A stretch of 64,000 nt of DNA from Hyphomicrobiales bacterium 4NK60-0047b (GTDB lineage: Bacteria; Pseudomonadota; Alphaproteobacteria; Rhizobiales; HXMU1428-3). How positions within the stretch are numbered: position 1 is the first letter of the stretch; each line of letters starts with the position of its first letter. Position numbers and translations under genes: made by a program. Of the stretch, positions 10,622 through 56,894 are shown piece after piece. A model generated the notes under the pieces. It was given only the letters and a program-made list of their open reading frames with translations. It was not told where the DNA came from and did not search any database. The stretch lies in the NCBI GenBank assembly GCA_040367435.1, contig BAABWY010000008.1, positions 62,001-126,000 on the forward strand, read 5' to 3'.

Positions 10622-10731
10622 CCGAATAAGGAGCTCAGCCCACTTCGGGCTGTGGGACATGGCGAAGCCCGGCGCAAGTGCCTGCTCCTCGAAGTGCCTG
10701 CAGCAATAGCTGCTGAATAGCCCGTGAGAGA
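10622..10731 (+). repeat. Structured repeat element, copy A1
   Basis: A 110-nt element between bioF and the esterase gene. Helices: AGGAGC/GCTCCT (10629-10634 with 10684-10689) encloses CAGCCC-ACTTC-GGGCTG, GGC-GAA-GCC and GGCGC-AA-GTGCC; a 3' hairpin GCAGC-AATA-GCTGC follows, then the tail AATAGCCCGTGAGAGA. It shares architecture but not exact bases with copies at 15.4 and 21.1-21.36 kb. Function unknown. Confidence 0.7.
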
Positions 10732-10746
10732 AAAAAGGATTATTTA

Positions 10747-11385
10747 ATGCAATTGGTCTTCATCCACGGTTGGGGAATGAATAGCAGAATTTGGCAAAGT
10801 ACAATCAAAGCCTTGCAAAGCTATGAATGTAAAACCATTGATCTTGGTTTCGTTAAAGGGGGAGAAACACATGTCCTTAATAGAACGCGGCCAACCATCG
10901 TTATCACCCATTCACTCGGCACAACCTGGTTTTTAAAAAACTACAAAACTGAAACTTTAGGCGAGCTCAACCTAAAGGCATTGGTTGCTGTAAGCGGTTT
11001 TACAAATTTTAGCAGCTTCACACCTGAGGAGACCCTGAAAAAAATGAAAGAGGGTGTCCTGGCTAACTCCGCAGCCCAAATGGCTCTCTTTTGGCGAAGA
11101 GCTGGGTGCAAAAACTTTGCAAGCCCAGAAAACCTAAACCTTGAAAAATTACATGAGGGACTTGCGTGGTTGACAAACTGGCAAGCAGCAGCAGAAGCCA
11201 AGGCTCTCAAATGCCCCAAATTCATCCTCGCTTCTAAAGCAGACAAAATAGTTCCCGCCAGTGCAATAGAAGAGCAATGGCAAGGTGAAAAAATCATCTG
11301 GCATCATCAGGCACCCCATTGCCTGCAATTAGCAGAGCCAGAATGGGTTGCCGAGAATATCCTTAAACAAGTTCAAGCCCTTTAA
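10747..11385 (+). CDS. Alpha/beta hydrolase, probable BioH-like pimeloyl-ACP methyl ester esterase
   Basis: A 212-residue alpha/beta hydrolase with an FIHGWGMN oxyanion loop and a catalytic triad readable as Ser56 (HSLGTTW), Asp166 (ASKADKIVP) and His191 (APHCLQL). In biotin clusters such enzymes (BioH, BioG and others) cleave the methyl ester of pimeloyl-ACP to end the BioC-BioH pathway. Position between bioF and bioA makes that role likely, though other esterase activities cannot be excluded. AAGGAT sits 6 nt before the ATG, just after a repeat element. Its last 23 nt overlap the convergent bioA end. Confidence 0.75.
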   Translation: MQLVFIHGWGMNSRIWQSTIKALQSYECKTIDLGFVKGGETHVLNRTRPTIVITHSLGTTWFLKNYKTETLGELNLKALVAVSGFTNFSSFTPEETLKKMKEGVLANSAAQMALFWRRAGCKNFASPENLNLEKLHEGLAWLTNWQAAAEAKALKCPKFILASKADKIVPASAIEEQWQGEKIIWHHQAPHCLQLAEPEWVAENILKQVQAL

Positions 11386-12679
11386 GTAAACCCTCATAGC
11401 CCTGCTTTAATTGTTCATTCGTTATAGAATAGGGCGGCATGAGATAAACAACAGGGCCAAGCGGTCGAATGTTCAAGCCTTCAGCCAAAAAGAAATCGCG
11501 TAATTTCAAACTGGTCTCGGATTTATAAGAACCTTCTGTGCCCTTATCACCTTCATCAATGTCAAACGCAAGAAGAGAGCCGCAAACACGAACATGTTTC
11601 ACTTTTCGATGAGAGAGTAATTCTTGTGCAAACTCCTGGTGACTGGCTTCAATCGCCTTTATGCGCTCTAAAGTTTGCTCTTCTTCAAAAAGAGCTAGAG
11701 ACCTGTTAGCAATCGAGCAAGCAAGTGGGTTGCCAGTAAAAGAATGCCCATGAGCTAAAGCTTTAGAAAAGTCATCTCCTAAAAACGCATCAAAAATATG
11801 AGCATCAATCACAGTGACAGAAAGCGGCAAAGTACCAGCCGTTAATCCCTTAGAGAGACAAATCATATCAGGCTTCACATCACATTGCTGATGGGCAAAT
11901 AAACTTCCCGTCCGTCCAAAGCCAGTCGCTATTTCATCAAAGATCACCAAAATGCCTGCAGCACGCGCAGTCTCAACAACCCGTTTCACAAATTCCGGGC
12001 GGCAAAATTTCATACCGCCAGCACCTTGAAATAAAGGCTCCATGATAATCGCAGCTATGGTGTCACCGTGCTGGTCAATCGTTTTCTGCAAAGCCGTTAT
12101 CGCTGTATCTTCACGGGTTTGCACTTCATTGTCACCAAGCCATGTTTCCCCATAAGGCACAGTATGAACCTGGCAAAGCAACTCATCGAATGAAGTAAAA
12201 AAACCAGAGCCCTTACCAACAGCCATGGCGCCAAACGTATCACCATGATAAGCGCCATCAAACGCAATAAAGTTCGTTCGCTGTGCCTCACCTTTGTTCT
12301 GCCAATATTGGTAAGCAACTTTGAGTGCAACCTCAACAGAGGTCGAACCATTGTCAGAAAAGAAGATTTTTGAGAGATTGCCGCCAAGATGATGGCTCAG
12401 ACTTTCAGCGATTTGAACCGCCGGTTCATGGGTAAAGCCTGAAAACATCACATGAGACATTTTATTGGCCTGAGCCATCATTGCGTCATTAATAGCCGGA
12501 TGTGAGTGACCATGGGTGATGGTCCACCAGGAAGAGATCAGGTCGATAATTTCATTGCCATCAACATCAAAAAGCGAGGCATCTTTTGCATGAGAAAGGG
12601 CAATGGGCTCACACTCAGTTTTATGCTGAGTAAAGGGATGCCAAATATATTCTTTATCGCGAGAGATTAAATCAGTCAT
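11363..12679 (-). CDS. bioA: Adenosylmethionine--8-amino-7-oxononanoate aminotransferase
   Basis: A 438-residue class III PLP aminotransferase that converts KAPA to DAPA using SAM as amino donor. It opens with the BioA-specific KEYIWHPFTQHK and keeps SSWWTITHGHSHPAI, GAYHGDTFGAM, IFDEIATGFGRTG and the PLP-lysine segment CLSKGLTAG. The ATG at 12679 overlaps the bioD stop as ATGA, which I prefer over an in-frame TTG at 12694. Its 3' end overlaps the convergent esterase gene by 23 nt. Confidence 0.96.
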   Translation of the reverse strand: MTDLISRDKEYIWHPFTQHKTECEPIALSHAKDASLFDVDGNEIIDLISSWWTITHGHSHPAINDAMMAQANKMSHVMFSGFTHEPAVQIAESLSHHLGGNLSKIFFSDNGSTSVEVALKVAYQYWQNKGEAQRTNFIAFDGAYHGDTFGAMAVGKGSGFFTSFDELLCQVHTVPYGETWLGDNEVQTREDTAITALQKTIDQHGDTIAAIIMEPLFQGAGGMKFCRPEFVKRVVETARAAGILVIFDEIATGFGRTGSLFAHQQCDVKPDMICLSKGLTAGTLPLSVTVIDAHIFDAFLGDDFSKALAHGHSFTGNPLACSIANRSLALFEEEQTLERIKAIEASHQEFAQELLSHRKVKHVRVCGSLLAFDIDEGDKGTEGSYKSETSLKLRDFFLAEGLNIRPLGPVVYLMPPYSITNEQLKQGYEGLLKGLELV

Positions 12680-13308
12680 GACGAAGGCCACCAATCATTA
12701 GTCGGAATATTAGGAGAAAGAGACAAAAGACTGTCCTTCGATAAATCAGAAAGGTGAGGGATCTCAGCTAAAATTTTAACATTTCCATATTGCATAATTG
12801 CTTCTTTGTTACCTTCGTTTGGCTCACCACTTAGAATAACACCAGCAATAGAAATGCCAGCAAGACGCATAACTGAAATTGTCAGCAAGCTGTGGTTTAT
12901 AGTGCCAAGCGCCGTTCGTGCAACAATAATTGTTGGCAGTTTTAAAGTAGCCATGAGATCAATCATAAAACTTCGATCATTAAGCGGAACCATAACACCG
13001 CCAGCACCTTCAACAATAAGAGGCCGAGAACAACTGGGAAGAGAAAAATCACTAAGCTCAATCTTCACACCATCAAGCTTCGCTGCAGCATGAGGAGAGA
13101 GAGGGGCGTTTAATTCAAATCGAGATGGGAGAAACCTGTCATCATCAAAAGAAGTTAAACGTTTGACAAATTGTGTATCCGTTTCATCTTCCAAACCGGA
13201 CTGTATGGGTTTCCAATATGTGCCATCTAAGTGCAACTGCACAAAAGCACTTGCAACGCTTTTACCAACATCAGTGTCGGTGCCAGTGATAAAAAATCCT
13301 TCAGCCAA
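12676..13308 (-). CDS. bioD: Dethiobiotin synthetase
   Basis: A 210-residue ATP-dependent carboxylase that closes the ureido ring of dethiobiotin. The P-loop is FITGTDTDVGKS at the N-terminus, followed by PLSPHAAAKLDG and VEGAGGVMVPL, both BioD signatures. The start is a TTG at 13308 because the P-loop begins a few codons later and no ATG precedes it. The stop overlaps the bioA start (ATGA), so bioD-bioA are translationally coupled. Confidence 0.94.
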   Translation of the reverse strand: MAEGFFITGTDTDVGKSVASAFVQLHLDGTYWKPIQSGLEDETDTQFVKRLTSFDDDRFLPSRFELNAPLSPHAAAKLDGVKIELSDFSLPSCSRPLIVEGAGGVMVPLNDRSFMIDLMATLKLPTIIVARTALGTINHSLLTISVMRLAGISIAGVILSGEPNEGNKEAIMQYGNVKILAEIPHLSDLSKDSLLSLSPNIPTNDWWPSS

Positions 13309-13366
13309 GATAAATTGCTTTCTGTAAATTTATTGAATGCGAAACGAGTTAATGCCTTAATGTCAT

Positions 13367-15124
13367 TTATTTAATACCATGCGCGAGTTTTTTAAGAGCA
13401 AAGCTAAAGAAAAATAACAAGATACCAATGCCAATAGCATAAAGACCAATATCTTGAAACACTTTCACATAAGTGGCGAGTGATGCAGCTGGGTCAAGAA
13501 CTTGTCCCGCAATGGTTTTGGTGGCTGTAAGTTTCGCAATGATAGATCCTAGCCACTGTGCCCAGGCCGATGCTAAGAACCAAACTGCCATCAGCGTTGA
13601 AATCAAAGATGCAGTTGCTAATTTTGTCATCTGGCTAAGCCCAACAGGCGAAATAAAGAGCTCGCCAGTTGTATGAAACAAATAAGCCAACATCAAAAAG
13701 ATGAGCGGAACTTTATGGTCATCACCAGCAAATTGCGCTCCATAAACCAGAACCAAAAACCCAAGCCCAACTTGAACAAGAGCAAAAGAGAATTTCATCG
13801 GAGCGGAAAAATCACGGTCTCGCCTGCCAAGAAACGCCCAGAGCGCACTAAATATAGGGGCCAAGATCAAAATGAAGCCAGTATTGAACGATTGTGTTTG
13901 TGACGCTTGTAGCGAAATGCCAGCAAGTGAGAGCTCAGTATTTCTATTTGCAAATTGATTAAGCGAAGAGCCCGCTTGTTCAAATAGAGTGAAGAATACA
14001 GTGGCTGCAAAAATTAAAATGAGTGCTAAAATAATCCGATGACTTTCAATCTTAGTGAGGGATGTCATCATCAAAAATATAAGATAAGAGAGGATCAGAA
14101 TAGAGCCGAGCATTAAGAGGTAACCAACCATCTCATGGCGTTGCACCAATAACCAAAGCAATCCAATCCCGAGGATGGAGAGGAGGTAAATTCCCCACTC
14201 TTTATTAAGAGGGCCAATAAAAGGTTGTTTTAAGAGAGCCGGTTCGTTTGGCTCACCTCGCCCCTCAAGCATGGGCGCTCCCCAAACAAACACCACCCAC
14301 CCGGCAAGCATACCAAACCCGGCAAGACCAAAACCAGCCCACCAGCCAACGGTCTGCCCTAGCAAACCACAAAGGATAGAAGCCCAAAAGGCACCAAGGT
14401 TAATGCCATAATAATAGAGTGTAAAACCGGGATCGCGCCTCGGGTCATTTTCTTCATAAAGTTGCCCGACCAAAGATGAAATATTTGGTTTTAAAAAACT
14501 GACCCCCAAAATGATAAATGAAAGGGCGAGAAATAATACATTTTGCGCTAATTTGTCTCTGCCAGTCACAGCAAGAGAATAACTATCTTTCTCTAGTCTT
14601 GAAGGGAGTTGTTCACTTCCTTCATAACCATTAATGAGAAGGGCGCCATCTTTGTCCGGCGAGAAACTATAGAGCCTATCTGAAATTTTAATTTGCACAT
14701 CGCGGCTGCTACCGCGCCCCGTCACAACAAAATCATAAGATTGATTATTAAATGTCAAAATTTGCTGAGCCGGTTTTCCTTCATAGGCCATTAAAAAATG
14801 GCCAGCAACAAGAAGAAGCGCACCAAAGGCAACAGCTTTGCGCGTACCAAGATAGCGGTCAGCTAAAATGCCACCAATCAAAGGGGTGAGAAAAACAAGC
14901 GATGTATAGGAGCCATAAAACCCTTGCGCCGTTTCATCATCAAAAAGGAAATGTTGAGTTAGATAAAATATAAGAAGGGCGCGCATACCATAATAAGAAA
15001 AGCGCTCCCACATTTCAGCAAAAAATAAAACCAAAAGCCCACGCGGATGAGATTTAAATTGTCGCCACACCGGAATAAGTGTGAGGAATGTAATTACTAA
15101 CCCAATTAAAATAATACTATTCAT
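13367..15124 (-). CDS. POT family peptide transporter
   Basis: A 585-residue proton-dependent oligopeptide transporter (MFS superfamily, PTR2/POT) that imports di- and tripeptides across the inner membrane. The proton-coupling motif EMWERFSYYG is near residue 36, followed by the MFS loop GGILADRYLGTRKA. About 13-14 membrane helices are visible. An insert of about 70 residues between helices III and IV (around residues 118-190, with beta-like polar sequence) is longer than in the E. coli Dtp proteins. It is a stand-alone gene downstream of a repeat-rich 500-nt region. Confidence 0.92.
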   Translation of the reverse strand: MNSIILIGLVITFLTLIPVWRQFKSHPRGLLVLFFAEMWERFSYYGMRALLIFYLTQHFLFDDETAQGFYGSYTSLVFLTPLIGGILADRYLGTRKAVAFGALLLVAGHFLMAYEGKPAQQILTFNNQSYDFVVTGRGSSRDVQIKISDRLYSFSPDKDGALLINGYEGSEQLPSRLEKDSYSLAVTGRDKLAQNVLFLALSFIILGVSFLKPNISSLVGQLYEENDPRRDPGFTLYYYGINLGAFWASILCGLLGQTVGWWAGFGLAGFGMLAGWVVFVWGAPMLEGRGEPNEPALLKQPFIGPLNKEWGIYLLSILGIGLLWLLVQRHEMVGYLLMLGSILILSYLIFLMMTSLTKIESHRIILALILIFAATVFFTLFEQAGSSLNQFANRNTELSLAGISLQASQTQSFNTGFILILAPIFSALWAFLGRRDRDFSAPMKFSFALVQVGLGFLVLVYGAQFAGDDHKVPLIFLMLAYLFHTTGELFISPVGLSQMTKLATASLISTLMAVWFLASAWAQWLGSIIAKLTATKTIAGQVLDPAASLATYVKVFQDIGLYAIGIGILLFFFSFALKKLAHGIK

Positions 15125-15216
15125 GAAACTCAGCCCCCATCAGCGAGTGTGCGCATACTTATGAGCACGGAAATACGTAAAAAACTTTCTATAAGCTCAG
15201 CACAGTTTTGAAAAGC

Positions 15217-15389
15217 GCACAAGTTCACATTCATGCGAGGCGTACAAAAGATCAGCCCGGATGGAGCGCGGCGAGTACGGATAAGCTGATCGTAAGAAAA
15301 GTATTGCCCCTCGAAGGCTCAAGCGAGAAAGCAGCTCGGTTGCTTGTGGGCAACTAAAGGCACACTAAAAAGCAATAGCCGTGAGAGAA
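15217..15389 (+). repeat. Divergent composite repeat, copy A2
   Basis: GATCAGC (15250-15256) pairs with GCTGATC (15285-15291) around a GC-rich loop. Then comes CCCCTCGAAGGCT, the hairpin module B (GGTTGC-TTGTGG-GCAACT near 15338) and the tail AGCAATAGCCGTGAGAGA. The 5' half differs from the other copies while the 3' half is the same, suggesting mosaic assembly. Confidence 0.55.
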
Positions 15390-15406
15390 AACAAATAACC
15401 ATCCAC

Positions 15407-15556
15407 CCGAAGAAGGAGTGTCGCCACTTTGCGACAGGACATGACGCCAAAGGCGTCCGGCGCAAGCGCCGCCTCTCGGAGGCCCAAGCGCTTAAGTACG
15501 GTTGCTAGTGGGCAACTGAAGTGCCACAAAAAAACGCTTGGAATAGCCGTGAGAGA
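15407..15556 (+). repeat. Structured repeat element, copy A3 with inserted hairpin
   Basis: Same architecture as copy A1. TGTCGC/GCGACA (15419-15424 with 15431-15436), GACGCC/GGCGTC and GGCGC/GCGCC hairpins are present. The 3' helix CCAAGCG/CGCTTGG is split by an inserted module B hairpin GGTTGC-TAGTGG-GCAACT. It ends AATAGCCGTGAGAGA and lies about 70 nt before the first small secreted protein gene. Confidence 0.7.
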
Positions 15557-15625
15557 AAACAAATGAACCAATTTCCCTCACAACAAGACCAATAGATATC
15601 AGCAAATATTTATTGGGAGACAATC

Positions 15626-16015
15626 ATGACATTCATAAAAGAACAGAACGTACTCTGCACTGTATGCGTGCTCACATTGAGCTCATTTCTTCTGGTCAGT
15701 ACACACACGCCTTCCGAAGCTTACGGAGCAAAGCTTGCTGCGAAAAATTGTGCCGCAACTTACAAATTAGGCAAAGGCAAACATAAACAAAAAAATTATG
15801 CAGGAAAGAATGCGATCAAAAACTGGAGTGCTCATGTCACATCTAGTTTAGGCCTCAAATGGGCGTCTTGGAAGCATGCATCTGCAAAATCAATTCCATG
15901 CACATATTCAAAACATTCAAAACTGTGGGGATGCAGAGCGATTGCAAAACCTTGCGCTTTCAAATCAAGGAACAAAATCCGTTCGCTCAAAACAATAAAA
16001 GTTAAAAAAGATTGA
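15626..16015 (+). CDS. Small secreted cysteine-containing protein
   Basis: A 129-residue exported protein with an N-terminal signal peptide ending near SEAYG. The mature part is basic and contains NWSAHVTSSLGLKWASW, KSIPC, LWGC and AKPC, so it has four or five cysteines suited to disulfides. The next gene encodes a shorter relative with the same order of motifs. The family resembles uncharacterised secreted proteins of Rhizobiales; no enzymatic motif is visible. GGGAGACA precedes the ATG. Confidence 0.75.
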   Translation: MTFIKEQNVLCTVCVLTLSSFLLVSTHTPSEAYGAKLAAKNCAATYKLGKGKHKQKNYAGKNAIKNWSAHVTSSLGLKWASWKHASAKSIPCTYSKHSKLWGCRAIAKPCAFKSRNKIRSLKTIKVKKD

Positions 16016-16094
16016 ACCAAATCAAAATCCAGTACGACCAATAAGCAGCAAACAAATTGATCGAAAATTATGAATACTAAAAAGGAATAAACAA

Positions 16095-16421
16095 ATGAAA
16101 CTTTTATCTACAACTCTGACAGCAGCAATTTTAACATCAGTATTAGGCCTAGGCTTAGTGTCACAATCAAATGAAGCCCATGCATATGCTTGTAAATCTT
16201 ACCCAACTCAAGCTGTTGGCGTTAGAAAAGGAAAATTCAAAGCAAGAAATATCGCCAGAAAAGGCTGGTCGATAAACGTAAAATCTCAGTTTGGTGTACC
16301 ATGGTCCGTTTGGTCGATCGCAAAGAATAAATCTATTACCTGTAGCAAGATTAATACGAACCAAGGTAAGAAATGGCGTTGTCTATCCTCAGCTAAACCA
16401 TGTCTATATGTTGTGAAATAG
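16095..16421 (+). CDS. Small secreted protein, paralogue of the upstream gene
   Basis: A 108-residue exported protein with signal peptide ending near AHAYA. Shared with the upstream gene, in the same order: GWSINVKSQFGVPWSVW, an A-x-N/S-K-SI-x-C segment, KWRC and SAKPC. The pair therefore arose by tandem duplication and both probably adopt one disulfide-bonded fold. AAAGGAATA precedes the ATG. Role unknown; the basic charge would fit binding to nucleic acid or cell-envelope polymers, which is speculation. Confidence 0.75.
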   Translation: MKLLSTTLTAAILTSVLGLGLVSQSNEAHAYACKSYPTQAVGVRKGKFKARNIARKGWSINVKSQFGVPWSVWSIAKNKSITCSKINTNQGKKWRCLSSAKPCLYVVK

Positions 16422-16515
16422 CAATAACTCTACCCCCAATAGAGTTTAGCTCTCAACAGGTCCTGTACCCAGTCCCTTACCCTAGTCGAGCGCTAAATTT
16501 TATAGACATGTCACT

Positions 16516-16557
16516 CTCCGCAACTCTTTCCCGATTAAGAGTTGCGGAGTTTTTTTA
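16516..16557 (+). terminator. Strong intrinsic terminator after secreted protein pair
   Basis: CTCCGCAACTCTT and AAGAGTTGCGGAG form a perfect 13-bp stem with an 8-nt loop, followed by seven T. Confidence 0.93.
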
Positions 16558-16569
16558 TTTAAGTGGTTT

Positions 16570-17076
16570 TTATTTCAGGCGCTTGCGCATTAAAAAATCA
16601 TTGAAATTTTCAGCGTACAAACTGTCAATCGTACAGGTCTTCTGATAGCCCATGGCGAGATAAAATTCATAAGCTGCCAAATTAAAATCCGAGCAGAGCA
16701 GCCAAAGACTTCGAGTAGCCTCAGGAGCTTGCACGTCAAACCAGGTCATTAGCTCTGAGCCAAGCCCTAGTCTTTGGACCGAAGGTAAAAGGCCAAGCAA
16801 TTCCAAATAAGGCCCCTTTAACCATGGCTCTCGAACTGAAATTGCGCCAACGAGATCATCTCCAAAATGAATAGAAAAACGAAAAAGGGAAGGGTCGTTG
16901 CGAGTGAAATGGTCAAGTAAACTTTCTTCACCAAGAGCTATCTCACTCCAGGGGAGTATGTGAGAAAGTTTTTTTGATAAGCACTGAGCACGATCAGGGG
17001 TAATGCTCTCTAATGTGAGGGCTTCTCCTTTGATTTCGCCAAGATAATAGCGAGAATTTTTGTAACCATTCGTCAT
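16570..17076 (-). CDS. GNAT family N-acetyltransferase
   Basis: A 168-residue protein of the Gcn5-related acetyltransferase fold. The acetyl-CoA site is in the middle: the beta4 strand ELLGLLPSVQRLGLGSELM contains the Q-x2-G-x-G/A motif A, and the C-terminal NLAAYEFYLAMGYQKTC is the usual motif B (N-x2-A-x3-Y-x3-G-F/Y). The substrate cannot be inferred. It is convergent with the secreted-protein pair and not obviously in an operon. Confidence 0.85.
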   Translation of the reverse strand: MTNGYKNSRYYLGEIKGEALTLESITPDRAQCLSKKLSHILPWSEIALGEESLLDHFTRNDPSLFRFSIHFGDDLVGAISVREPWLKGPYLELLGLLPSVQRLGLGSELMTWFDVQAPEATRSLWLLCSDFNLAAYEFYLAMGYQKTCTIDSLYAENFNDFLMRKRLK

Positions 17077-17204
17077 GATAGAGCTCTTTACCCTAAAGTG
17101 TGTGAGTGCCAGAGGAAAAGTGCAAGTGCGTATGAATACGTATGAGAAAATCCTTATTTTTCATAGCGGTAATTCTACGCGGTCATAGATCATGTCCCTA
17201 AGTG

Positions 17205-18299
17205 TTAGTAATGAGAATTATCTCCAGGCTTGTTTTCATAACAAGTACTAGAAATTTGCGGCTCTCCGGCCGCTAATAATTCACTAATCGTAACAAATTC
17301 ATATCCCTGTTTTTTCAAATCAGGAATAAAAAGAGGAAGAGCTCTTACAGTATTCCTACCCCGCCCATTCGCATGAGCAATGATAATAGCCCCTGGTTTC
17401 GCACGTTGTTTAACAATAGAGGCAATTCGCCTGGCAGATTGCCCAAACGCAGGGTCTCCAGTTACGATATTCCACTGTATTGGCAATTGCCCATGTTTAT
17501 AAACCTCTTCAAGGGCTTGTTTATGGCATGTCCCAAATGGAAAGCGAAAAAGGGACAGTTTTTTAGGGACAGAAGAAAGAGGGGCTGCAAAAGAAGAATA
17601 TGTTTGTGAAGCAAGCGGTGTAGACAAAAAGCTATTTACCAAAGAAGGCGCAAAACAAAACCGTTTTGAAAGAGAGGTATAAGCTCTTTCATAGGCTCCT
17701 TGAACAGAAGAGATCTCACGCACCAAAGCTTTTCCATAGAGTTTACGTAAATTCTTATGTGACCAACCATGACTGCCAATTTCAAAAAGCGGGTCTGCAA
17801 TCAATTGCTGAGCACGTTCACTATGATGGTCAAGCCACTTGCCTCCTACAAACAATGTCGCTTTTATTTTGTGCGCGCGCAAATAATCAATAACACCTCC
17901 ATCATAGCCAGAGATTTCATAAGCTGCCTCGCAAAGATCCAGAGTGAGGGCAATAAGTTTCTTACCCTTTGGTAATTTTACCCATCTAACCGTCCCTTTT
18001 TTATTAGTCTTGCCTTTGAGGGATGTGTCTTTGAAAGGTAACCGAGCTTTAAGTGAAAATGGGGACTTATAAGCAGGAGGAAAAACTCCATGCCGAGAAC
18101 GCCGTGCTCTGATTTCTTTAGGCGCTCCCTTCAACTGTTCTGTAGTCCAGCAGCGCTTTAAGAGTTGTTCATTTCCCTGAGCATAGAGAGAAGAAGAAGG
18201 AAAGACCAAACAGGGAAATGAACATGCGAAAAAAAAGATGGTAAGGTTACGTCTCAATGAGTGTAGATAAGAGACAAAAATACATAATAAAATTTTCAT
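17205..18299 (-). CDS. Secreted polysaccharide deacetylase (NodB-like) with altered motif 1
   Basis: A 364-residue exported protein: signal peptide to about residue 40, then a NodB-homology domain (carbohydrate esterase 4-like). Motif 1, usually TFDDG, reads TLDLCEAA, so the metal-binding second Asp is replaced by Leu. Motif 2 is intact as GSHGWSHKNL (H-x3-H type). Later motifs FRFPFGTCH and GAIIIAHANGRG fit motifs 3 and 5. The change means metal binding may use another residue (for example the nearby Glu) or be lost. Substrate unknown. Confidence 0.8.
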   Translation of the reverse strand: MKILLCIFVSYLHSLRRNLTIFFFACSFPCLVFPSSSLYAQGNEQLLKRCWTTEQLKGAPKEIRARRSRHGVFPPAYKSPFSLKARLPFKDTSLKGKTNKKGTVRWVKLPKGKKLIALTLDLCEAAYEISGYDGGVIDYLRAHKIKATLFVGGKWLDHHSERAQQLIADPLFEIGSHGWSHKNLRKLYGKALVREISSVQGAYERAYTSLSKRFCFAPSLVNSFLSTPLASQTYSSFAAPLSSVPKKLSLFRFPFGTCHKQALEEVYKHGQLPIQWNIVTGDPAFGQSARRIASIVKQRAKPGAIIIAHANGRGRNTVRALPLFIPDLKKQGYEFVTISELLAAGEPQISSTCYENKPGDNSHY

Positions 18300-18382
18300 T
18301 TTTCACACTCCGTACCTACAGCAAAAAGAAGCAAAAAATCACCTAATTTCAATCCTATACTAAATAGTAGAAAAACACGAAG

Positions 18383-18421
18383 GATTCTAGGATTGGGAGA
18401 ATCAACAGGTTAATGTATAAT
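18383..18421 (+). promoter_or_regulatory. Sigma-70-type promoter with overlapping inverted repeat
   Basis: TTGGGA (18393-18398), a 17-nt spacer and a perfect TATAAT (18416-18421) precede the regulator gene at 18476. GATTCT (18383-18388) and AGAATC (18398-18403) form an inverted repeat around the -35, consistent with an operator, perhaps for the regulator itself. Confidence 0.55.
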
Positions 18422-18475
18422 GGTGATTCGTAGGCGGGTATTATTAATTGTAACTCTAATTGTGTGGGGAGTTTG

Positions 18476-18940
18476 ATGCGGCAAAGACTTGCACCGGAAT
18501 CAAATCGTATAGCAGACAAACTATGGGCAGCTATGCGCGACAACGAAAAATGGTGGTCAGTGAACGACATTTCAACAGAAACAGGGGCGAGCGGTCGATA
18601 TACAAGACGCTATGTTAGAGCTCTAAAAGAGGCCGGTTATGTTGAAGCTTCAGATGAGGCAAAACGGTTTCACTCGACTTATTATAAACTTATCAAAGAC
18701 ACCGGCGAAACAGCGCCAATTTTACGGGGACGTGATGGCAGCCTTGCTGTTTATGACCCAAATTTATCTGACATGACAGGCGAAGAGCTTGAGCAAATAC
18801 GTAGTCAGTTAAATTTAACTTTACGTGAGTTTGCAGACATCATAGGTGTGCGCGATCCAAGAACGGTTCGCCGTTATGAAACAATGGATCATGTGCCTCC
18901 TCAGGTTGCAGATACAGCGCGCAAAGCTCATTTGCGTTAA
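18476..18940 (+). CDS. Two-domain HTH DNA-binding regulator
   Basis: A 154-residue cytoplasmic protein. The ATG at 18476 has GGGGAG just upstream. The N-terminal part (about 10-65) reads as a winged helix: SVNDISTETGASGRYTRRYV, then KEAGYVEAS. The C-terminal part (about 100-150) is a second helix-turn-helix of the XRE/MqsA kind: LTLREFADIIGVRDPRTVRR followed by YETMDHVPPQV. Such proteins occur both in chromosomes and on mobile elements; no phage genes are nearby. A promoter with an inverted repeat precedes it and a long stem-loop follows, so it is a monocistronic unit that may regulate itself. Confidence 0.75.
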   Translation: MRQRLAPESNRIADKLWAAMRDNEKWWSVNDISTETGASGRYTRRYVRALKEAGYVEASDEAKRFHSTYYKLIKDTGETAPILRGRDGSLAVYDPNLSDMTGEELEQIRSQLNLTLREFADIIGVRDPRTVRRYETMDHVPPQVADTARKAHLR

Positions 18941-18990
18941 AGCTTAAAATCTCTCGAAATATTGCAAAAACTCATATTTAAACAAATTTC

Positions 18991-19048
18991 CAAAAGCCTC
19001 TTAACTCCTTTAGTCATATAAACTGAAGGATGAAGAGGCTTTTGTGCT
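18991..19048 (+). terminator. Terminator after the two-domain regulator
   Basis: CAAAAGCCTCTT (18991-19002) pairs with AAGAGGCTTTTG (19033-19044); the interior also pairs (CCTT-AGT with ACT-AAGG). T-rich sequence follows. Confidence 0.8.
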
Positions 19049-19165
19049 TTAAAAATATGTAATCGTTATATTTAGCACATAATTATAGCCTTGCAGGTAA
19101 TAGCCTCTCGCGCTATTACAAATCATCAAATATTTAAGATCCACAACGTCTAAAGGTTCATAAAG

Positions 19166-19453
19166 ATGCAAATCAATGAGGCCACGGTGAAAAAAATCGC
19201 CAAACTGGCACGCATTAAAGTCACAGATCAGGAAACAAAGTCATTGGAAGGTGAGTTGAGCTCAATTCTTTCATGGGTCGAACAACTAAACGAAGTCGAC
19301 ACCGATGATGTGGAACCTTTAACAAGTGTTGTCGAAACAACGATGAAAAAACGTGAAGATGTTGTGACAGATGGTGGCTACGCACAGCGAGTGACCAAAA
19401 ACGCACCGCTTTCTGAAGATAATTTCTTTGTTGTTCCAAAAGTGGTGGAGTAA
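19166..19453 (+). CDS. gatC: Asp-tRNA(Asn)/Glu-tRNA(Gln) amidotransferase subunit C
   Basis: A 95-residue GatC, the small subunit that wraps GatA and GatB in the GatCAB complex that amidates Glu-tRNA(Gln) and/or Asp-tRNA(Asn). It has the family start [12 protein letters not shown] and the core [19 protein letters not shown], with a C-terminal [10 protein letters not shown] as in other GatC. gatA starts 3 nt after the stop. Confidence 0.95.
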
Positions 19454-19456
19454 AAA

Positions 19457-20935
19457 ATGCCAGATTTATTAGATTTATCAATCGCAGAAGCTCGCGAAGG
19501 GCTGGGTAATGGTGATTTCTCGGCTAAAGAATATACTGAAAGCCACCTAAAAGAAATTGAAAGCGCCAACAAGGCGTTAAATGCCTACATATTAGAAACA
19601 CCGGAAAAAGCGCTAGAAATGGCAGCTAAATCTGATGATCGTATGGCCAAAGGCGAAGCCGGATTGCTTGAAGGTATTCCACTTGGCATCAAAGATTTGT
19701 TCTGTACAGATGGTGTCCGCACAACAGCTTGTTCTCATATTTTAGATGGCTTTGAGCCACCGTATGAATCAACAGTGACGGAAAATCTATGGAATGCCGG
19801 TGCTGTCATGCTTGGTAAACTCAACTTGGATGAGTTTGCTATGGGGTCTTCGAACGAGACCAGCCACTATGGTGAAGTTGTTAATCCTTGGCGCCGTGAT
19901 GGTGATGAAGCCAAATTAGTTCCAGGCGGCTCATCTGGCGGGTCAGCATCAGCGGTCGCAGCTCATCTTTGTGCAGCAGCAACAGCAACAGATACCGGCG
20001 GATCAATTCGCCAACCGGCAGCTTTTACAGGAACGGTTGGCTTAAAACCAACCTATGGCCGGGTTTCGCGCTGGGGGACGATTGCATTCGCCTCAAGTCT
20101 AGATCAAGCCGGACCAATTACCCGAACAGTTGAAGACGCCGCACTTATGTTGCAAGTGATGGCAAGTCACGACCCTAAAGATACAACATCAGTTGATATA
20201 GCAGTGCCTGATTATCGAAAAGAGATGGAAGGTAAGGTCAAAGGCATGACTGTAGGTATTCCAAAGGAATATCGGGTCGATGGCATGAGTGAAGAAATTG
20301 AAGCACTTTGGCAGCAAGGCATCGAATGGTATAAAGATGCCGGTGCCAAAATTGTTGAAGTGAGCTTGCCTCATACAAAATATGCATTGCCTGCTTACTA
20401 TATCGTAGCACCAGCTGAGGCTTCTTCTAATCTCGCTCGTTATGATGGCGTTAAATATGGCCTCAGAGTTGAAGGTGATAGCATTGACGGCATGTATGAA
20501 AACACAAGAGCTGAAGGCTTTGGAGCTGAAGTTAAACGCCGGATTTTAATGGGAACTTATGTGCTCTCAGCTGGCTATTACGATGCGTACTATCTCAAGG
20601 CACAAAAAGTGAGAACGCGCATCAAGCAAGACTTCGATGAAGCTTTTAAGAATGTAGACGTAATGCTCACCCCAACAACACCAAGCCCGGCATTTGCAAT
20701 GGGCGAGAAATCGGGTGATCCACTAGAGATGTACCTAAACGACATATTCACAGTGACTGTGAATATGGCAGGGCTCCCAGGAATTTCAGTACCAGCTGGC
20801 ATGTCAAAATCTGGTTTACCGCTAGGACTACAACTTATCGGCAAACCATTTGATGAAGGCACGCTGCTAAAAGCTGGCCAAGTAATCGAGCAAGCAGCAG
20901 GCGAACTACCAAAACCAACAAAATGGTGGGCATAG
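19457..20935 (+). CDS. gatA: Asp-tRNA(Asn)/Glu-tRNA(Gln) amidotransferase subunit A
   Basis: A 492-residue amidase-signature enzyme that hydrolyses glutamine and feeds ammonia to GatB. The Ser-Ser-Lys triad is readable: Lys in [10 protein letters not shown] near residue 80, and the serines in [14 protein letters not shown] near 155-165 and [10 protein letters not shown] near 180. The gene is tightly linked to gatC; gatB lies 2.5 kb downstream, separated by a repeat array, chorismate mutase and a convergent hydrolase gene. A repeat begins directly after the stop codon. Confidence 0.97.
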
Positions 20936-20939
20936 TAGC

Positions 20940-21040
20940 GCCTGCTGTGCCGGTTGCTTTGTGGGCAACTGAAGGCACGCTAAAAGATAAGGCAACTGAA
21001 GCAGAACTAAAAAGCTCTTGGCATAGCCGTGAGAGAAAAC
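20940..21040 (+). repeat. Partial repeat copy A4 (hairpin module plus tail)
   Basis: GGTTGC-TTTGTGG-GCAACT hairpin (module B) and a half copy GGCAACTGAAG, ending CATAGCCGTGAGAGAAAAC. It lacks the 5' multi-hairpin part and begins at the gatA stop codon. Confidence 0.6.
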
Positions 21041-21042
21041 AG

Positions 21043-21363
21043 CGACGGTCACCTTGTAGGTAACCGTTATAAATATAATACTAACAACCCGAAGAGGGAG
21101 TGCCGCCACTTCGGCGGCAGGACATGACGCCAGAGACGTCCGGCGCAAGCGCCGCCCCTCGGAGGCCTTCTGCCTCAGCAGAAGAATAGCCGTGAGAGAG
21201 AACAACGACGGTCACCTTGTAGGCAACCGTTATAAATATAATACTAACAACCCGAAGAGGGAGTGTCGTCACTTCGGCGGCAGGACATGACGCCAGAGGC
21301 GTCCGGTGCCTAGCACCGCCCCTCGGAGGCCTTCTGCCTCAGCAGAAGAATAGCCGTGAGAGA
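21043..21363 (+). repeat. Tandem 163-bp duplication carrying structured copies A5 and A6
   Basis: Two units with starts at 21043 and 21206 (period 163). Each opens with a hairpin ACGGT-CACC-TTGTA-GGT-AACCGT, an AT-rich stretch containing TATAAT, then the structured element (A5 21089-21199, A6 21252-21363). A5 has GAGGG/CCCTC, TGCCGCC/GGCGGCA, GGCGC/GCGCC and CTTCTGC/GCAGAAG helices. A6 has paired changes such as GGTGC/GCACC. The final GTGAGAG of A6 acts as ribosome binding site of the chorismate mutase gene. Confidence 0.75.
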
Positions 21364-21368
21364 TGAGA

Positions 21369-21680
21369 ATGACAATTAAAGCACCAAAAGATTGCACTTC
21401 AATGGATGATGTTCGCGCTGAAATTGATCGCCTGGACGAGCAGCTGGTAACCTTAATTGGAGAGCGTTTCACATATGTTGATCGAGCCTGGCAATTAAAA
21501 GACAATCCGGCAGATGCCACAGTGCCATGGCGCATTCAGCAAGTGATTGAAAAAGTGAGGGCTCATGCCGAAGAAAAAGATGTCCCGCCAAGGCTTGTTG
21601 AGGCACTTTGGCGCCAAATGATTGGCTGGTTCATTCAGTATGAAGAAGAAAAATTGGATGAAAAGCAGTCAAACGAATAA
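21369..21680 (+). CDS. Chorismate mutase, AroQ/PchB-like
   Basis: A 103-residue all-helical protein of the chorismate mutase type II family: DDVRAEIDRLDEQLVTLIGERF with the substrate-binding Arg near residue 16, AWQLKD, then a helix pair with IEKVRAHAEEKDVPPRLVEALWRQM and a Trp/Gln-rich end. Members convert chorismate to prephenate, or act as isochorismate pyruvate lyase (PchB); the sequence does not decide between them. Two ATGs are possible; 21369 is favoured because GAGAG lies 6 nt upstream, while 21363 sits on the repeat end with no spacing. A long terminator hairpin follows. Confidence 0.82.
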   Translation: MTIKAPKDCTSMDDVRAEIDRLDEQLVTLIGERFTYVDRAWQLKDNPADATVPWRIQQVIEKVRAHAEEKDVPPRLVEALWRQMIGWFIQYEEEKLDEKQSNE

Positions 21681-56694: not shown

Positions 56695-56707
56695 GTTTAT
56701 TGAGAGA

Positions 56708-56894
56708 GCGGATGCTAGTGGGCATCTGAAGCTCAGAAAAGCGGATGCTAGTGGGCATCTGAAGCTCAGAAAAGCGGATGCTAGTGGGCATCTGAAGCTC
56801 AAAAAAGCAGATGCAGCGACGGTTGCTTGTGGGCAATCTGAAGGAGCACTAAAATGCGACGGTTGCTTGTGGGCAATCTGAAGGAGCCCCAAGA
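56708..56894 (+). repeat. Tandem hairpin repeats (module B, five units)
   Basis: Three 33-bp units (56708, 56741, 56774) with the hairpin GATGC-TAGTGG-GCATC followed by TGAAGCTC, then two 40-bp units (56816, 56856) with GGTTGC-TTGTGG-GCAAtC followed by TGAAGGAG. The two types keep the loop and the TGAAG tail and change both sides of the stem together. The same hairpin occurs inside the structured elements at 15 and 21 kb. Confidence 0.8.

What the first reader, a model, noticed from the sequence alone, without database searches (positions are those of the whole stretch)
10622..21363. Undescribed modular structured RNA-like repeat with compensatory base changes
Copies at 10622-10731 (A1), 15407-15556 (A3), 21089-21199 (A5) and 21252-21363 (A6) share a layout: an enclosing helix, three hairpins, a 3' hairpin, then AATAGCCGTGAGAGA. 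Stems differ yet stay paired: helix 2 is CAGCCC/GGGCTG in A1, TGTCGC/GCGACA in A3, TGCCGCC/GGCGGCA in A5; helix 4 is GGCGC/GCGCC in A5 and GGTGC/GCACC in A6; helix 5 is GCAGC/GCTGC, CCAAGCG/CGCTTGG and CTTCTGC/GCAGAAG. The loop ACTTC and GGACATG are conserved. Seen directly. Selection at RNA level is inference: a small RNA, a leader element or a structured mobile repeat. I know no named RNA family that fits.
Basis: partly seen in the sequence, partly recalled or inferred. Interest (0 to 1): 0.78.

Follow-up and report, generated by a model that had tools for sequence, protein, structure and literature searches.

The report
Replication-oriented hairpin repeats that swap parts
The four copies are members of a roughly 115-base hairpin repeat scattered between genes in a group of alphaproteobacteria; nearly all copies point the same way relative to DNA replication, and they seem to trade whole hairpins with each other, so it looks like an oriented mobile DNA repeat rather than an ordinary RNA gene.

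Summary
In detail: four good copies sit at the stated places, plus a degenerate copy (about 15229-15388) and a remnant (20938-21036). They belong to a family with at least 150 copies in this 3.47 Mb genome and 20-60 scored copies in each of 7 congeners. The 3' domain recurs in 85 of 397 genomes searched in the order. No Rfam family matches. Pairing and covariation are strong, but much of the 'compensatory' variation here is exchange of whole hairpins. Hairpin alleles assort almost independently over 118 copies, and at orthologous loci one hairpin can be replaced while the others stay. Copies are intergenic and in both orientations to genes, yet 143 of 150 share their contig's orientation, always the C-rich strand by GC3 skew. 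Two smaller hairpin repeats, R2 and R3, often sit in its loops and show the same polarity. No Y1 transposase or reverse transcriptase was found in this genome. Best reading: a non-autonomous, replication-oriented, modular DNA repeat whose mobilising enzyme is unknown. An RNA role for the order-wide 3' core is not excluded.

The parts
10622..10731 (+). R1 copy A1 (short hairpin-2 form; one extra base in the end motif)
   Evidence: 79 bits, E 1.5e-20
15229..15388 (+). Degenerate R1 copy, start not well defined, carrying nested R3 (about 15246-15299) and R2 (about 15332-15370)
   Evidence: 15277-15388 E 0.0038; R3 motifs 15250-15267 and 15279-15292, R2 core 15338-15354, exact end motif 15374-15388
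15407..15556 (+). R1 copy A3, with an R2 inside the last hairpin
   Evidence: 100.9 bits, E 1.2e-26
15496..15534 (+). R2 repeat (GG[T/A]TGC...GGGCA[A/T]C hairpin, outer stem, A-run at its 3' end) nested in the loop of hairpin 4
   Evidence: core 15500-15516; boundaries read by eye
20938..21036 (+). R1 remnant: R2-type hairpin and end motif CATAGCCGTGAGAGA
   Evidence: by eye (R2 core 20952-20969); not reported by the model
21089..21199 (+). R1 copy A5
   Evidence: 114 bits, E 2.5e-30
21252..21363 (+). R1 copy A6; apparent tandem duplicate of A5 with its left flank, but with another hairpin 3
   Evidence: 110.7 bits, E 2e-29; spacers compared by eye
56706..56890 (+). Tandem array of solitary R2 hairpins, same strand as the R1 copies in the window
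   Evidence: R2 cores at 56710, 56743, 56776, 56821, 56861 (+)

Best explanation
R1 is a dispersed, non-autonomous, structured DNA repeat of the chromosome. SHOWN: about 115 nt of four variable hairpins joined by conserved linkers, ending in a conserved 3' core; intergenic; at least 150 copies here; one orientation relative to replication; hairpins that assort and are replaced largely independently of each other; two other hairpin repeats (R2, R3) that nest in its loops with the same polarity. INFERRED: it spreads and is edited as folded single-stranded DNA at replication forks. Some enzyme that sees the folded 3' core, or strand annealing and template switching at the short conserved linkers, copies hairpins or whole units between loci when one parental strand is exposed. 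That would fix the orientation, put R2 and R3 into loops and keep every inserted module self-complementary. The enzyme is not identified.
For: Copy number and family. Polarity: 99 of the 100 listed end motifs (my count) and 147 of 150 model hits (my count) share the contig's orientation; of 162 hits in the stretches held, 143 of the best 150 and 11 of the other 12 (my count). GC3-skew sign predicts it in 11 of 11 contigs with coding strand balanced (C4, C9, C10 and C11 rest on one stretch each), and the one 16S gene found lies on the opposite strand of contig C1. Relatives: 58 of 60 end motifs on the C-rich strand in two genomes, 14 of 14 in ten further contigs (my count), 58 of 68 in 54 other loci scored singly. 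Uniformity within contigs that have 2 or more listed hits (my counts): G032, another family, 39 of 39; G004 38 of 40; G007 20 of 23. R2: 164 with and 12 against, solitary R2 65 and 4; R3: 21 and 0. Exchange: independent assortment in five of six hairpin pairs; 9 of 20 orthologous pairs without nested inserts are mosaic; L012/L128 identical in the aligned left flank and hairpins 1-3, two single-base differences in the next linker, then hairpin 4 replaced by another one carrying R2. Midpoints outside ORFs in 150 of 150; convergent gaps enriched, divergent depleted, p 2e-7.
Against: No mobilising gene found: no Y1 transposase in 7 of 8 genomes of the genus, no reverse transcriptase in 6 of 8, own included. 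No target-site duplication and no precise single-copy empty site were obtained; the clearest gains are tandem ones that include a ~20-nt leader. The polar pattern is absent in G018 and G255, where copies often sit as head-to-head pairs, and unclear in G033 (4 of 8 on the C-rich strand, short loci). Among the 8 clean pairs with flanks 88% or more alike, modules are mostly unchanged (7, 7 and 8 of 8), so exchange is not fast, and 4 of 20 pairs differ in every module, which independent insertion could also give. The cleanest replacement, L012/L128, involves an R2. Hairpins 2 and 3 favour G-U over A-C (36 to 12). The 3' core covaries across the order, so a host function is not excluded. H1 and H2 are weakly associated (p 0.03).
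Confidence: 0.6

Rival explanations
1. A host-used polar chromosome signal (REP-, KOPS- or primase-site-like): the folded strand binds a protein that acts on replication, segregation or topology, and selection keeps one orientation.
For: Strong polarity with the C-rich strand in the genus and in G032; conserved 3' core in many genomes of the order; avoidance of divergent gaps.
Against: No match was detected in 312 of 397 genomes of the order (few candidates scored each), while others hold 40 to 150 or more; polarity is lost in G018 and G255; R2 and R3 are equally polar although unlike R1 in sequence; orthologous copies come and go (25 of 72 comparisons lack the end motif).
Confidence: 0.17
2. 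A structured RNA: small RNA, mRNA 3'-end element or ribozyme-like motif, multiplied in this genus.
For: Significant folding; P5a pairs in 66 of 66 cells with several pair types and a nearly invariant purine-rich GNA/GUGA loop; hairpins 2 and 3 favour G-U.
Against: Both orientations to flanking genes; G-U 73 against A-C 53 overall; hairpins replaced as blocks; both strands fold strongly in the four copies tried; no Rfam match.
Confidence: 0.13
3. REP/REPIN- or IS200/IS605-type element moved by a Y1 (RAYT/TnpA) transposase that has since been lost.
For: Hairpins, intergenic, replication-oriented as expected for lagging-strand transposition (mechanism in passages of PMC6006769); head-to-head pairs in G018 and G255 resemble REPINs; Y1 genes in G003 and G033, weak in G018. 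In G013 a weak R1-like match (E 7e-4) lies about 500 bases from a sub-cut-off Y1 match.
Against: No Y1 in own genome or 6 of 7 congeners while all carry 20 or more copies; the two Y1 genes of G003 have no R1 match in the 17-kb stretch fetched, nor has the one of G033 in 7 kb, and the weak one of G018 is 7 kb from an R1 pair; G032 is rich in R1 and has none.
Confidence: 0.07
4. Ordinary palindrome correction: intrastrand template switching keeps arms identical, so apparent compensatory changes need neither RNA selection nor movement.
For: Few half-changed pairs and, overall, no clear excess of G-T over A-C cells.
Against: Does not by itself put a wholly different hairpin at a locus with near-identical flanks (L012/L128), nor give independent assortment or one orientation genome-wide.
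Confidence: 0.03

Closest known systems
REP / BIME / REPIN elements (PMC3116915, passages read) and their RAYT transposases (PMC6006769, passages read)
   Same: Intergenic hairpin repeats in high copy, plausibly moved as single-stranded DNA.
   Different: R1 is a four-hairpin unit of about 115 nt, not a REP doublet; in this genus it is polar and not paired head-to-head; no RAYT in 7 of 8 genomes; hairpins exchange as cassettes.
IS200/IS605-derived miniature elements
   Same: Orientation set by replication; folded ends.
   Different: No Y1 transposase found in own genome, no demonstrated target sequence; an autonomous version was not seen.
Rhizobium RIME, Sm and A/B/C intergenic palindromes (mentioned in PMC2573895 and PMC2245857, passages read; Osteras 1995 not held)
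   Same: Intergenic palindromic repeats of rhizobial genomes, of unknown function.
   Different: The order-wide model finds nothing better than E 0.7 on S. meliloti pSymA and pSymB; that these carry RIMEs is recalled. Sequences not compared directly.
Brucella Bru-RS (118 nt, 222 copies in the table of PMC2267715; outline and one section read)
   Same: Order (recalled), size, intergenic.
   Different: Not compared; no Bru-RS sequence was at hand.

Membership tests
Known Rfam RNA family | Match at or near a family's gathering score | tested here: not met
   Window: 0 matches; two copies at E up to 10: one chance match; 20 loci from relatives: none over gathering on the element; two Brucella sRNA matches on L200, below gathering, overlap its 5' part on the other strand
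tRNA-derived element | tRNA gene or fold in the window | tested here: not met
   0 genes
Cis-regulatory RNA / sRNA | Fixed orientation to the regulated or host transcript | tested here: not met
   142 of 150 copies with both neighbours: 50 sense and 36 antisense in co-directional pairs, 49 convergent, 7 divergent
Cis-regulatory RNA / sRNA | Transcription of the element | not testable with these tools
   no RNA-seq available
REP/REPIN (RAYT system) | RAYT/Y1 transposase in the genome | tested here: not met
   (controls ring in 5 of 14 named genomes)
REP/REPIN (RAYT system) | Repeats flank the RAYT gene | tested here: not met
   G003, 17 kb with both Y1 genes, and G033, 7 kb: no R1 match; a weak match near a sub-cut-off Y1 match in G013
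REP/REPIN (RAYT system) | Units as inverted pairs | tested here: not met
   own genome 143 of 150 one way; inverted pairs do occur in G018 and G255
IS200/IS605-type element | Orientation set by the replication fork | tested here: met
   origin and terminus themselves were not located
IS200/IS605-type element | Defined target site and clean empty sites | tested here: inconclusive
   tandem gains and loop insertions; no target duplication, no common target seen beyond A-rich flanks
Group II intron / retroelement derivative | Reverse transcriptase in the genome | tested here: not met
   RVT_1 in 2 of 8 genomes of the genus, not in own
Rhizobium RIME / A,B,C palindromes | Sequence-structure relatives in S. 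meliloti replicons | tested here: not met
   best E 0.7 on pSymB, none on pSymA, strict filters; chromosome not searched; direct comparison with RIME sequences not done

The most novel reading that the evidence does not exclude
A replication-fork-coupled hairpin-cassette system: folded single-stranded hairpins are exchanged between more than 100 chromosomal loci through short conserved linkers, on the same strand relative to the fork, by an unidentified enzyme that is neither a Y1 transposase nor a reverse transcriptase, giving combinatorial repeats into whose loops further hairpin elements insert.
Probability: 0.25. Interest if true: 0.86.

Novelty: new variant of a known kind. Interest (0 to 1): 0.66.

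Why it matters
Strong covariation across dispersed copies is often read as proof of a selected RNA. Here much of it arises because whole hairpins are exchanged, a caution for RNA discovery by covariation on repeats. The strong replication polarity of three hairpin families that are unlike in sequence, in a genome where the usual single-strand transposase was not found, makes a testable claim: some other process inserts or keeps folded DNA by replication strand. The 3' core shared across the order gives an affinity bait to find the protein.

Tried and rejected
Known RNA family or tRNA: searched, none. REP/RAYT and retroelement origin: partner genes missing in own genome. Plasmid or phage element: blastn with four queries found no match in plasmids, and one query none in phages; 53 IMG/VR stretches with the 15-mer hold no model match, so those 15-mers look like chance. 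Gene-strand cause of the polarity: rejected, coding strand is balanced. Plain GC skew was a poor guide; third-codon-position skew was used. Independent insertion at the same site as the cause of mosaics: disfavoured, since random pairs share a module in 8-10% of cases against 45-60% for orthologues. The first register of the 3' helix (CTCG/TGAG with a G-U pair) was replaced after the order-wide alignment by CTC/GAG (CGC/GCG elsewhere) with a GNA/GUGA loop. In one search helices 3 and 4 suffer from misalignment (about 80% paired). Rows dropped: A4 has 22 of the 24 rows of A3 (L217 and L222 left out; L217 has a T-G cell at the third P5a pair); one search counts 20 pairs without nested inserts out of 39; one search counts 118 of 150 after removing copies within 450 bp; searches use the best 150 of 162 hits; one search leaves out 7 of 113 named loci. 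Hits are capped by the number of candidates scored, so copy numbers are lower bounds. Five single-contig genomes had 1 to 7 matches each, too few to look for a strand switch at origin and terminus.
Full report
OBSERVATION. The four copies exist at the stated coordinates. A DNA search of the window's own genome (G000, 3,466,275 bases, 26 contigs) with 21089-21363 gives 47 matches. The 15-base end with at most one mismatch occurs 169 times against 1 for the reversed control. A covariance model from 64 copies scores 150 hits in the genome, which is the cap, all at E <= 2e-11, and 162 at E <= 0.001 in the 738 kb held here, window included.

ANATOMY. 5' to 3': an A-rich leader of about 20 nt ending near CTAnCTAT, ACGAAGAAGGAG, hairpin 1, GGACATG, hairpin 2, hairpin 3, then a 3' domain: CTC-GNA-GGC, hairpin 4, AATA, GCC-GUGA-GAG, followed by an A-rich stretch. 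Of 32 gaps under 300 bp between neighbouring copies, 14 are 16-21 nt (my count), about the length of the leader. On A1, 31 pairs are formed in 96.5% of 1938 cells, 21 pairs have changes on both sides, and covariation is 0.413 against 0.145 in shuffles (0 of 500). Two other hairpin repeats occur inside the loops of hairpins 3 and 4 (some R2 in hairpin 1), next to R1, or alone: R2 (about 37-39 nt) and R3 (about 50-55 nt). Both carry an A-run at their 3' end.

MODULES ARE SWAPPED. In 118 non-tandem copies hairpin 2 has three main forms (50, 34 and 24 copies), hairpin 1 has 31 left-arm sequences with a few common ones, and the alleles of the four hairpins assort almost independently (mutual information against 2000 shuffles: H1-H2 p 0.03, the other five pairs p 0.23-0.94). 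At orthologous loci in relatives, single modules differ completely while the others stay. In L012/L128 the aligned left flank and hairpins 1-3 are identical and two single-base differences lie in the next linker, but hairpin 4 is another sequence carrying R2. In L010/L180 and L035/L179 hairpin 1 with the leader differs (L010 also further upstream; L179 has an extra copy in the opposite orientation upstream); in L067/L073 hairpin 4; in L039/L105 the leader and hairpins 1-3, with an R2. Of 39 orthologous pairs, 20 lack nested inserts: 9 are mosaic, 6 unchanged, 4 different in every module, 1 in between. A module is shared in 45-60% of orthologous and 8-10% of random pairs; in the 8 pairs with flanks 88% or more alike modules are mostly unchanged (7, 7 and 8 of 8). 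Half-changed pairs are rare. G-T (73) and A-C (53) cells are not clearly different overall (p 0.09), unlike what RNA pairing would favour (general knowledge; no control RNA was run), though hairpins 2 and 3 taken alone do favour G-T (36 to 12) and hairpins 1 and 4 do not (37 to 41).

POLARITY. 99 of the 100 listed end motifs agree in strand within their contig, as do 147 of the 150 model hits (my counts; the exceptions are two on C1 and one on C11). In the stretches held, 143 of the best 150 hits agree (p 4e-34 if copies were independent). Third-codon-position skew is negative on the + strand wherever R1 is '+', and positive wherever it is '-', in 11 of 11 contigs; coding strand is balanced (C4, C9, C10 and C11 rest on one stretch each). 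The one 16S gene found is '-' on C1 where R1 is '+'. So, if leading strands are G-rich and rRNA is co-directional with replication, R1 sense equals the lagging-strand sequence. R2 agrees 164 to 12, solitary R2 65 to 4, R3 21 to 0. In two named relatives (Methyloligella sp. DHS20C07 and Rhodomicrobium sp. DHS20C08, metagenome-assembled) 58 of 60 end motifs are on the C-rich strand, in ten further contigs 14 of 14 (my count), and in 54 other loci scored singly 58 of 68. In one search, counting contigs with 2 or more listed hits, G032 (another family) is uniform in 39 of 39, G004 in 38 of 40, G007 in 20 of 23. By short loci other families give G018 7 of 8 (best copies), G032 5 of 7, G027 2 of 3, G033 4 of 8. 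G018 and G255 are mixed, with head-to-head pairs.

GENE CONTEXT. 0 of 150 midpoints lie in an ORF of 150 aa or more. For 142 copies with both neighbours, genes are co-directional sense 50, antisense 36, convergent 49, divergent 7, against 108, 77, 56, 57 for all gaps of 100 bp or more (p 2e-7). ORFs are mechanical calls, not annotated genes.

DISTRIBUTION. All 7 congeners carry 20 to 60 scored copies, 60 being the cap. A second model from 74 sequences of several families hits 85 of 397 genomes of the order, 49 of 141 genera, with only 9 candidates scored per genome. In 22 sequences from 14 genomes the outer 3' helix pairs in 66 of 66 cells with C-G/A-U/G-C, G-C/U-A and C-G/U-A types around a nearly invariant GNA/GUGA loop. 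I chose the sequence boundaries by that motif and left out two of 24 rows, one with a T-G cell there, which favours P5a somewhat; the shuffles and slides are the control. The exact-pattern scan of the named genome collection gave 113 stretches; their titles are all of metagenome-assembled genomes named Hyphomicrobiales, Hyphomicrobiaceae, Methyloligella, Rhodomicrobium or, once, Anderseniella. No plasmid or phage match, none on pSymA and pSymB better than E 0.7.

MECHANISM. What I think most likely, and have not shown: R1 behaves as a non-autonomous structured DNA repeat whose insertion and editing happen on single-stranded DNA at forks. For: polarity of three hairpin families, insertion into loops, tandem gain, presence and absence between species (25 of 72 comparisons of an own copy with a relative lack the end motif in the relative, some by decay). 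Against: the enzyme is missing. Y1 transposases were not found in own genome or 6 of 7 congeners, and the two of G003 have no R1 match in the 17 kb held; in G013 a weak R1-like match lies near a sub-cut-off Y1 match. PMC6006769 (passages) also reports none or few such genes in Alphaproteobacteria. Reverse transcriptases: 2 of 8 genomes of the genus. A host-used polar signal is the main rival; the conserved 3' core fits it as well as it fits a mobilisation site.

LITERATURE. Searches of the open-access library listed no paper on this repeat or on hairpin exchange with replication polarity, as far as titles and abstract starts show; passages or sections of five of the listed papers were read. 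Subscription papers, among them the RIME description, were not readable.

Noticed in passing
G000 contigs C1 and C2: Third-position GC skew falls from about -0.4 to about -0.13 within C2 between 311 kb and 360 kb with no change of sign; the C1 stretches and the first part of C2 are strongly skewed, the stretches of the other contigs weakly. Strong and weak contigs occur in DHS20C07 too.
   Followed up: no
window 56706-56890: Tandem array of five R2 hairpins, two versions of the stem (GATGC/GCATC and GTTGC/GCAAT).
   Followed up: partly
window 21349-21365: The last base of R1 copy A6 is the A of the ATG of the next ORF (21363-21680), so the repeat ends directly at a possible start codon.
   Followed up: no
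window 15626-16015 and 16095-16421: Two neighbouring small ORFs with signal-peptide-like starts, cysteines and similar layout look like a duplicated secreted protein (by eye, not tested).
   Followed up: no
L200 1406-1545 (-): Below-gathering match to Brucella sRNA CI27 (RF02600, E 1.6e-5) overlapping the 5' part of an R1-family copy; hairpin 1 of R1 relatives in G013, G033 and G099 resembles other common rhizobial palindromes (recalled), as if foreign palindromes fill that slot.
   Followed up: partly
L035 7867-8014 and L043 10328-10474: R2 in reverse orientation inside the loop of hairpin 1, among the few exceptions to R2 polarity inside R1 (5 of 36).
   Followed up: no
G000 contig C4: Only 3 of the 150 model hits lie on the 389-kb contig C4, far below the density elsewhere.
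   Followed up: no
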